Positions 12,341 to 17,698 of a DNA stretch of 64,000 nt are shown piece after piece (the first letter of the stretch is position 1; each line of letters begins with the position of its first letter). The notes under the pieces are model-generated. The model saw only the letters and a list, made by a program, of their open reading frames with translations, did not search any database and was not told the origin of the DNA. Made by a program: the position numbers and the translations under genes. Where the stretch lies: the NCBI GenBank assembly GCA_030141605.1, contig JAQGDQ010000013.1, forward strand, positions 1,079,947-1,143,946, read 5' to 3'. The DNA comes from Tubiluchus corallicola (Eukaryota > Priapulida > Priapulimorpha > Priapulimorphida > Tubiluchidae).

Positions 12341-15300
12341 ATGGCAGATGTACATGTGACTGTTGATCCAGGATTTCAACAGACAACGAGCGCTCCTGCT
12401 TCTAAACCTCACTGGGATCCAAGTTTCATCAAAACACGTCCTGGTATACTGAAAATTGTTCAGTTAGTAGGTACTTTTTATTTTGTTATGCCTCATAAGG
12501 CATCTGATTTGATTTCAAAATATTTATGTATATAGATGAAGACTTTACAATGCTGTTAACTATATCAGTGCCTGATTAAGCTTTGGCTAGTTGCATTGTA
12601 CAATCTTTGCTGCTGGATAAAGTATAGACAGTTGTTATTGTGAAATCACTATTTATTTAAAATTCTGGCTTATGTTGTAAATGGCGGAAGTTATTGAAAA
12701 ACATGTGTATTTTTAAATGTTAATAAACTATTAAATATTAGAGCTGCCTCTATTCATGAGCATTGGGTTGATATCTGTGTTTTTGCCTTTTATTGTAACT
12801 TAGCCTTGCATCTTGCATCCCCATTTAGCGACGTTGCTTTTTAATGTCGCTGAACGTTTGGCACCTTTTCTTCACTTAACGACACACTGTATCATTTTAA
12901 CGATGATTTTTTGGCTTTGCACAAAGCCAATTTCTATTATATCAACAACTTTTTTTACTTAATTTGATGCCTTAAAGCTAAACATATTGCATTATTCTGT
13001 TCTAAAATGCAATAGTAATGTAAACACTGCAATTATTATATATATATATATATATATATATATACATATTCACTCATTGGTTCTATTTGCTTGAGCAGTG
13101 AGCATAAACCCACAAAAATTTATTTTTTTGTAACAACTAGGTTTTGTTTTATTGATGACAAAGATTCAAATACTGCAACACCAAAATTTGTGCTTGAATT
13201 TACCATTTTAAGAGCCCTTATATATTTTAGCTTTGTCTTCTTTCAGAGTCATTAAGGCCCTTTGTTTGTAAGTGAGTGACGTCTGATTAATTGACCATTA
13301 TGCACGCTTTTATAACTATGAAGGGTGTAAAAATGTGCCCTGTTTGAGAAGGAAAGTGCTTCTGCCCCTCTTATGTTGTTATGGAAGGCTGACATGCCAA
13401 AGTTTTCGAGAATGCAGATTTAATGCAACCAAACATTTTTTTTAGGTATTGGACTTAATTGCATTCTTCTGCTGTATAGCTCAATATGGCAGGGGAAATT
13501 ATAGCGCTTTGGGATTCTTTGAATTTGTGACGATGTCGGCATTTTGGATAACTTTGATACTTTTTATCTTCTATTTATTCCATGTGATTAGTTGGCTGAC
13601 AAAAGTTCCTTGGATGAAGATCGTAAGTTGCCGTTGCATTCTCGTAGTAGAGTTTCGTAATGAGTTTATTAAAACTGAGAAATGTATGAGCCATGTGTTG
13701 GGATTCGTGAACGGACTGCACAAATGATTTATTATATACATGAATGGAACGAATGAAATCTTGAGCATTTGCAATAAGGCAGGACTGGAAATTTGAAAAA
13801 AAACACAATAACACTACACTCAAACCTGTGGGACAAAAACTTATCATAGTGTGTAAAATAGTTGATAATATTAAAAAATTTCTACCAACACAGTTAACTA
13901 AATGGTGTGAAAAAGCCAAACTGTTGCATAATTACAGAGAGAGAGAGGGACAGAGAGGGGGGAGGAAGGGAGAGAGAGAGAAAGAGAGAGAGAGAGAAAG
14001 AGAGACTTGGAGCAAGAAAAATGTGAAGAGGATGATTTTTCAGGAGTTTGTTTCACAGTGGGATCTATAGTATCATACTGTATGTATCATACTACTGCCA
14101 ACACAGTTAGTTAGATACTAGAAGGCCAAAAGCCAAACTGTTATATAAATGGAGGGAGAAAGACAAAGTGATAGAGAGAGACAAAGAGAACAAGAAATGG
14201 AGAGAGGGAGAGAGAGAGAGAGCAAGAGAGAGAGAGAGACAGAGAGAACAAAAGAGAGAGGGTGGAAGGGGATGAGCCACCACACCTGGGAATAAAAACA
14301 TAAAAGTTGTGATTTATTTTTCAGGAGTTTTTTTACAGTGCAATCTGGACTCTGCTGTATTTAATATCATCTATCATACTTGCAAGCTTTGCCAGCCAAC
14401 ATAAAAGCACTGGGGCTGCACAAGTTGCTTGTGTAAGTACAAGTAAATCATATAATAACATTTATTTGTACCCCCACTTGCTTCCCATATTCAAATAATT
14501 ACCATGAAAACGTAACAAATGTAGGGATTATTAATTAATCAGTTACCTGTGTTGACTTATATGTGTGCTTGCAAACCAAAACCGTCCACAAGTCAGCAAA
14601 TGTAAAACTACATTATGATGCTTCAAAGTAGAGTGCATTAAAAATCTAGTCAAATGTCAATTTCTTGTTTTTTTTTCATAAAAACAAATGCTAAACCTAT
14701 TCGACTTTTATATTCTGGTATTAAATTATCAAGAAAACGTTAAAAAAATACTAAAAATCTAATTTTAAGAGCCTGCGCCCTCTTTTCTGGCTAGGGCTAG
14801 AAACTAGTACCACAATTGTAAAAAACTTCGATAGTAGCTTGTGGAAGCAGTAATTTTGCTTCGGCTTTTTTCTGCTACTAAGGCCAGATCTTCAATAGGA
14901 AGAGCCATCTACTGGATTTAAACATAATTTCGATGTGTTCTTGTAAAGTCCATAGCAACTACGCTTTCGTACGGATGTTAAGTGTCTTGTAGAAATATGG
15001 CAAAAACAATGTCCAACTTTAACAGTGATTTTCTCAAGATTATGTTTTTCAGTGCGTAGCAACCGTGCCTCAACTTCAACATGGATTATCTTAGCTTAAA
15101 AATAACATGGAGCAATAAGCTTGATACCAAAATGATACTCATGAAATGGAGAATCAGGATATTTGAATAACTAAAAAAGCTGAATTGCCTACTACTGTCG
15201 CTGTAGCTGTCGCTATGCAAGCACACATGTTGTTTGCACCCTGACTTACTCCCGATATACAGTTTCATTAATTTGCGACGACGGCAAGCAAATAGTTATG

Positions 15301-17698: not shown

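What the first reader, a model, noticed from the sequence alone, without database searches (positions are those of the whole stretch)
13935..16913. Complementary GA and CU tracts bracket exon 3 of MARVEL paralogue A
In the pre-mRNA, intron 2 carries a (GA)n tract 62 nt before exon 3, and intron 3 carries a ~520-nt (CU)n tract after it. These are Watson-Crick complementary and could pair around exon 3, a layout known to promote back-splicing (circRNA) or exon skipping. Exon 3 is 108 nt, phase 0 on both sides, and encodes TM3, so skipping would keep the frame but change membrane topology. That the pairing happens is inference.
Basis: partly seen in the sequence, partly recalled or inferred. Interest (0 to 1): 0.72.

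Follow-up and report, generated by a model that had tools for sequence, protein, structure and literature searches.

The report
Complementary GA/CU repeats flanking one exon
Two neighbouring sister genes for a small membrane protein each carry a GA repeat before and a CT repeat after the same exon, so the RNA could fold that exon into a loop; the pattern looks inherited from one ancestor, and nothing in the sequence yet shows that it is used.

Summary
In MARVEL gene A, intron 2 holds GA tracts at 13936-14005 and 14173-14260; the purine run ends 62 nt before exon 3. Intron 3 holds a 523-nt CT tract (16391-16913). Exon 3 is 108 nt, phase 0, and codes the third hydrophobic segment. The finding does not mention that sister gene B (26697-32385) has the same layout: GA at 30449-30567 and CT at 31561-31722 around its exon 3. 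All 12 pure GA/CT runs of 12 nt or more in the window lie in these introns. Both GA flanks and the right CT flank align between A and B, the left CT flank does not; so the layout is probably one inherited event, not two. The RNA duplex is predicted to be very stable. Selection is not seen: transitions that keep pairing (21) match those that break it (18), and A's main GA tract is 24% impure. Exon-3 skipping is plausible, with precedent in human MAL. A single-exon 108-nt circRNA is disfavoured by size and intron length. Best reading: two ordinary microsatellites inherited together, able to loop out exon 3, with probably minor effect. No RNA data were available.

The parts
13446..13622 (+). exon 2 of MARVEL paralogue A (177 nt, phase 0)
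13936..14005 (+). GA tract 1, intron 2 of A
   Evidence: TRF
14044..14079 (+). decayed copy of the exon-3 start after a copy of its 3' splice site, with a candidate GTATGT donor at 14080; in-frame TAG
14173..14260 (+). GA tract 2, intron 2 of A (purine-rich stretch about 14152-14272)
   Evidence: TRF; inverted-repeat arms
14325..14432 (+). exon 3 of A (108 nt, phase 0, third hydrophobic segment)
16391..16913 (+). CT tract, intron 3 of A (523 nt; pure run of 292 nt at 16511-16802)
17606..17698 (+). exon 4 of A with stop
29924..30115 (+). exon 2 of paralogue B (192 nt)
30449..30567 (+). GA tract, intron 2 of B (pure 94-nt run 30449-30542; purine-rich to about 30590)
30857..30973 (+). exon 3 of B (117 nt, phase 0)
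31561..31722 (+). CT tract, intron 3 of B (162 nt, pure)
32293..32385 (+). exon 4 of B with stop

Best explanation
Two GA/CT microsatellites arose on either side of exon 3 in the single ancestor of MARVEL genes A and B and were carried into both by tandem duplication. In the pre-mRNA the GA and CU tracts can pair and put exon 3 in a loop of about 2.1 kb (A) or 1.0 kb (B). The likely consequence, if any, is a minor share of exon 2-4 joins that lack TM3, as in human MAL, as a by-product and not a selected switch. Shown: tracts, gene models (by homology and splice consensus, no cDNA), homology of the loci, predicted duplex stability. Inferred: that pairing forms in cells and that it affects splicing.
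For: A and B are tandem paralogues: 117 of 167 aligned residues identical, dS about 0.37 and dN 0.19 by NG86 (0.28 and 0.21 by YN00), with alignable introns. The GA locus aligns on both sides between A and B (left of tract 1 z 11.2; left of tract 2 z 5.2; right of tract 2 z 9.2; 200 shuffles each) and the CT locus on its right side (z 10.0). Duplex energies are -157.9 (A, tract 2), -121.8 (A, tract 1) and -278.0 kcal/mol (B). In MFE folds from exon 2 to exon 4, 138 of 142 GA-tract bases (B), and 66 of 70 plus 98 of 121 (A), pair with the CT tract. Masking the CT tract costs 198 (A) and 233 (B) kcal/mol. No sign of selection: 21 pairing-keeping against 18 pairing-breaking transitions over the five tracts, with 20 transversions. 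A's tract 2 is 29 of 121 impure, which is in the range of A-B divergence in the aligned blocks (about 21-32%).
Against: Both tracts were kept at dS about 0.37, which could point to constraint. The other short-period arrays (unit 6 or less) in the two duplicated blocks, 4 by my count (3 in A, 1 in B), are not shared; but all 4 lie outside the aligned blocks, so this control is weak. The left flank of the CT tract does not align (z 0.7 near, -2.2 over the whole left part), so independent origin of the CT tracts is not excluded. Base-shuffled GA tracts still reach means of -81 to -153 kcal/mol against CT, so part of the stability is mere purine/pyrimidine bias.
Confidence: 0.62

Rival explanations
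1. A conserved splicing switch: the GA-CU duplex is maintained to loop exon 3 out and set the share of a three-TM isoform in both genes.
For: Same layout in A and B; very stable predicted duplex; frame kept on skipping in both; human MAL makes minor transcripts lacking exon II and/or III, with four phase-0 exons (PMC8145151, passages).
Against: Shared ancestry explains the repeat of the layout. No bias towards pairing-keeping changes, and A's GA tracts have decayed. The distance from GA to exon 3 differs: 62 nt in A, 289 nt (266 from the end of the purine stretch) in B.
Confidence: 0.18
2. Back-splicing: pairing brings the ends of exon 3 together and makes a 108-nt (A) or 117-nt (B) single-exon circRNA.
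For: Complementary tracts in both flanking introns, the arrangement that favours back-splicing (PMC7404189 and PMC6376117, passages).
Against: Exon 3 is short and the introns are short compared with human single-exon circRNAs (averages 404-709 nt, medians 169-253 nt; in HEK 293, flanking intron medians 8413 and 5898 nt). Those are human figures; the species here is unknown.
Confidence: 0.06
3. The tracts act apart from pairing: CU as a binding platform for a PTB-like repressor, or GA/CT DNA as a triplex-prone element that slows polymerase; either could alter exon 3 use.
For: Length and purity of the CT tract. PTBP1 looping by two pyrimidine tracts is described in PMC7404189 (passage); non-B DNA motifs, triplex among the five examined, correlate with exon skipping in human and mouse (PMC3902930, abstract and passages).
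Against: Only intron 3 has a long pyrimidine repeat, while PTBP1 looping as described uses two tracts. No protein or chromatin data here.
Confidence: 0.1
4. Tract length in the assembly is wrong: the 292-nt pure CT run is hard for short reads and may be mis-sized.
For: Pure run 16511-16802; reads not available.
Against: Interruptions within the tract, and a CT tract in B too, argue that the tract itself is real.
Confidence: 0.04

Closest known systems
Human MAL exon II/III skipping (PMC8145151, passages)
   Same: Four coding exons, all junctions between codons; forms without the second or third TM segment; skipping keeps frame.
   Different: MAL skipping was seen by RT-PCR as minor transcripts; no GA/CU pairing is described in the passages read. 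Here there is no RNA evidence.
Exons looped out by paired intronic sequences (Miriami et al. 2003; inverted repeats put in place of hnRNP A1 sites), as told in review PMC7404189 (passages)
   Same: Complementary stretches in both introns around one exon.
   Different: Those are GC-rich or engineered repeats; here long GA/CT dinucleotide repeats. Miriami's paper is not held.
AC/GT repeat pairs across introns in fish and lamprey (Lin et al., via PMC7404189, passage)
   Same: Complementary dinucleotide repeats in pre-mRNA forming a stable stem.
   Different: Those act across one intron; here the pair spans an exon.
Reverse complementary motifs flanking circRNA loci (PMC6376117, passages)
   Same: Complementary sequence in both flanking introns.
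   Different: Exon and introns here are much shorter than typical human single-exon circRNA loci.

Membership tests
MARVEL-domain protein | Match to Pfam MARVEL above the curated cut-off | tested here: met
   A: 76.6 bits against cut-off 32.8. B was not scanned, but 117 of 167 aligned residues are identical to A
Exon looped out by intron pairing | Complementary stretches in both flanking introns | tested here: met
Exon looped out by intron pairing | Exon skipped in transcripts, dependent on the pairing | not testable with these tools
   no RNA-seq or minigene
Exon looped out by intron pairing | Pairing conserved through compensating or pairing-keeping changes (not strictly defining; a sign of function) | tested here: not met
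   21 keeping, 18 breaking transitions over five tracts; small sample, one species
RCM-driven circRNA locus | Back-splice junction reads, RNase R resistance | not testable with these tools
   no RNA data
RCM-driven circRNA locus | Long exon (if single) and long flanking introns (a human tendency) | tested here: not met
   exon 108/117 nt; introns 702 and 3173 (A), 741 and 1319 (B) against human values
AC/GT-type intron-bridging repeats | Complementary repeats within the same intron | tested here: not met
   pure GA runs of 12 nt or more only in intron 2 and CT only in intron 3 of both genes

The most novel reading that the evidence does not exclude
A GA/CU duplex around exon 3 predates the A/B duplication and has been kept in both genes as a structural switch that tunes a TM3-less isoform, a dinucleotide-repeat 'exon-looping' device distinct from the intron-bridging AC/GT repeats of fish; repeat length would then set splicing in a graded and fast-evolving way.
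Probability: 0.12. Interest if true: 0.6.

Novelty: new member of a known kind. Interest (0 to 1): 0.33.

Why it matters
If the pairing acts, two sister genes with tracts of different length and purity (A's GA decayed, B's tracts nearly pure) are a natural test of how simple-repeat pairing sets exon use. If not, it is a clear case where striking complementarity has an ordinary cause: two linked microsatellites and one gene duplication.

Tried and rejected
Independent origin of the layout in A and B: not the main reading, because GA flanks and the right CT flank align; the left CT flank does not align, and A's intron 3 has about 1.8 kb without a found counterpart in B, so it is not excluded for CT. 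Selection for pairing: tested by the direction of substitutions, no signal (the bounds of A tract 2 and B GA were widened by eye to 14152-14272 and 30449-30590, and phase slips were allowed in the count). Timing of the partial exon duplication in intron 2 of A: not resolved, since A1-A2 left-flank identity, 41 of 54, is like A1-B, 40 of 52. Relatives elsewhere: one scan of viral contigs with the A+B alignment gave 114 pattern matches and no relative; no solved structure matched A at E up to 0.1. Judged by titles and abstract starts, none of the listings showed a paper on GA/CU repeat pairs around an exon; the terms 'GA repeat' and 'CT repeat' had 0 occurrences in all 9 papers listed. That is no proof of absence from print.

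Full report
What is there. Paralogue A has four coding exons on the + strand (12341-12466, 13446-13622, 14325-14432, 17606-17698), all of whole-codon length with GT/AG junctions. The 167-aa protein matches Pfam MARVEL with 76.6 bits, cut-off 32.8. Intron 2 holds GA arrays at 13936-14005 and 14173-14260; intron 3 holds a CT array of 523 nt at 16391-16913. The gene models rest on homology and splice consensus; no cDNA was available.

What the finding did not mention. The window holds a second, downstream paralogue B with exons 26697-26828, 29924-30115, 30857-30973 and 32293-32385. Its intron 2 carries GA at 30449-30567 and its intron 3 carries CT at 31561-31722. All 12 pure GA or CT runs of 12 nt or more in 64 kb lie in introns 2 and 3 of A (10) and B (2), GA always in intron 2 and CT always in intron 3. 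Between the two GA tracts of A lies a decayed copy of the exon-3 start with its 3' splice site (pseudo-exon from 14044, candidate donor at 14080, in-frame TAG), and the flank left of the tract is present twice (13882-13946 and 14095-14163).

Why the layout is in both genes. A and B share 117 of 167 aligned residues, dS about 0.37 and dN about 0.19 (NG86; YN00 gives 0.28 and 0.21). With the tracts masked, the two gene regions align in 8 blocks of 68 to 79% identity, exons and introns together; 3 further short matches are TA repeats and are left out. The sequence left of the GA tract (z 11.2 for A tract 1, 5.2 for tract 2), right of it (z 9.2) and right of the CT tract (z 10.0) aligns between A and B above every one of 200 shuffles; left of the CT tract it does not (z 0.7; -2.2 over the wider left part). 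So the GA locus is homologous, and the CT locus probably is. The layout is therefore most likely one event inherited twice. Given two GA/CT-type tracts in a gene, opposite orientation has a chance of one half. The chance that two random points fall in the two introns flanking one exon of A or B is 0.30%, 0.15% with orientation; this is post hoc and ignores intron bias.

Can it pair? Predicted duplexes: A tract 2 with CT -157.9 kcal/mol (98 pairs), A tract 1 with CT -121.8 (68), B -278.0 (138). Base-shuffled GA tracts give means of -100.4, -80.9 and -153.1 (30 shuffles each). B's GA with A's CT gives -284.5, so pairing between transcripts is equally possible on paper. In MFE folds from exon 2 to exon 4, 138 of 142 GA bases of B pair with CT, and in A 66 of 70 and 98 of 121. 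Masking CT raises the MFE by 198 (A) and 233 (B) kcal/mol, masking GA by 260 and 269. These folds ignore proteins and the order of synthesis, and any such pair of long repeats would be expected to give this result.

Is it kept for pairing? Over the five tracts there are 59 departures from pure repeat, phase slips allowed: 21 transitions that keep a pair as G-U (A>G 18, C>T 3), 18 that break it (G>A 17, T>C 1), and 20 transversions. There is no bias. A's tract 2 is 29 of 121 impure and tract 1 is 9 of 70, B's GA 10 of 142, A's CT 11 of 523, B's CT 0 of 162. The purer tracts are what recent slippage would also give (inference). The spacing from GA to exon 3 is 62 nt in A and 289 nt in B. In favour of constraint stands only that both tracts survive in both genes. 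The other short-period arrays in the two blocks (3 in A, 1 in B by my count) are not shared, but all 4 lie outside the aligned blocks, so this is a weak control.

What it most likely does. If the duplex forms, exon 3 sits in a loop of about 2.1 kb (A) or 1.0 kb (B), and joining exon 2 to exon 4 could be favoured. The product keeps frame in both genes (131 and 138 aa) and lacks the third hydrophobic segment. Human MAL, a MARVEL protein with four phase-0 exons, makes minor transcripts lacking exon II and/or III (PMC8145151, passages), so such a form is credible. Looping by paired introns, AC/GT repeat stems across fish and lamprey introns, and PTBP1 looping are described in PMC7404189 (passages). 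Back-splicing of exon 3 alone is less likely: human single-exon circRNAs have averages of 404-709 nt and medians of 169-253 nt, with very long flanking introns (PMC6376117, passages), whereas here the exon is 108 or 117 nt and the introns are 702 and 3173 (A) or 741 and 1319 nt (B).

Verdict. Observation confirmed and extended. The reading as a circRNA or skipping device is partly supported: pairing is predicted, effect unproven, selection not seen, circRNA disfavoured. I take it as two linked microsatellites passed on by tandem duplication, with a possible minor effect on exon 3 skipping (0.62), and leave 0.12 for a maintained repeat-pairing switch. The species was not identified; the own-genome search did not complete, and no orthologues could be compared.

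Noticed in passing
14037-14094: Decayed copy of the exon-3 start with an intact-looking 3' splice site (TTTTTCAG|GAGTTTG) and a GTATGT donor candidate at 14080, with in-frame TAG; could serve as decoy or poison exon, or be dead.
   Followed up: partly
16914-16929: The CT tract of A is followed within 10 nt by a CAG (16921-16923): a possible cryptic 3' splice site, after which the frame carried from exon 3 meets TAG at the second codon (read by eye).
   Followed up: partly
15085-15193 and 15998-16101: Direct repeat of 109 columns, 79% identical, inside the part of A's intron 3 that does not align with B, with an inverted repeat at 16070-16178; perhaps remains of a mobile element.
   Followed up: partly
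59679-63123: Satellite of about 104 copies of a 33-bp unit, followed at 63554-63631 by a degenerate TTAGGG-like array.
   Followed up: no
38411-39526: 371-codon open frame with WD40 repeats in one piece; it looks like an intronless RAE1-type gene (the name RAE1 is recalled, no call gives it).
   Followed up: partly
8864-9331 and 28070-28276: Tandem arrays of 56-bp (8.4 copies) and 83-bp (2.5 copies) units; the second is in intron 1 of paralogue B.
   Followed up: no
18048-19293 and 32694-34031: Downstream sequence of A and B still aligns over about 1.3 kb at 70%, so the duplicated unit runs well beyond the coding exons.
   Followed up: no
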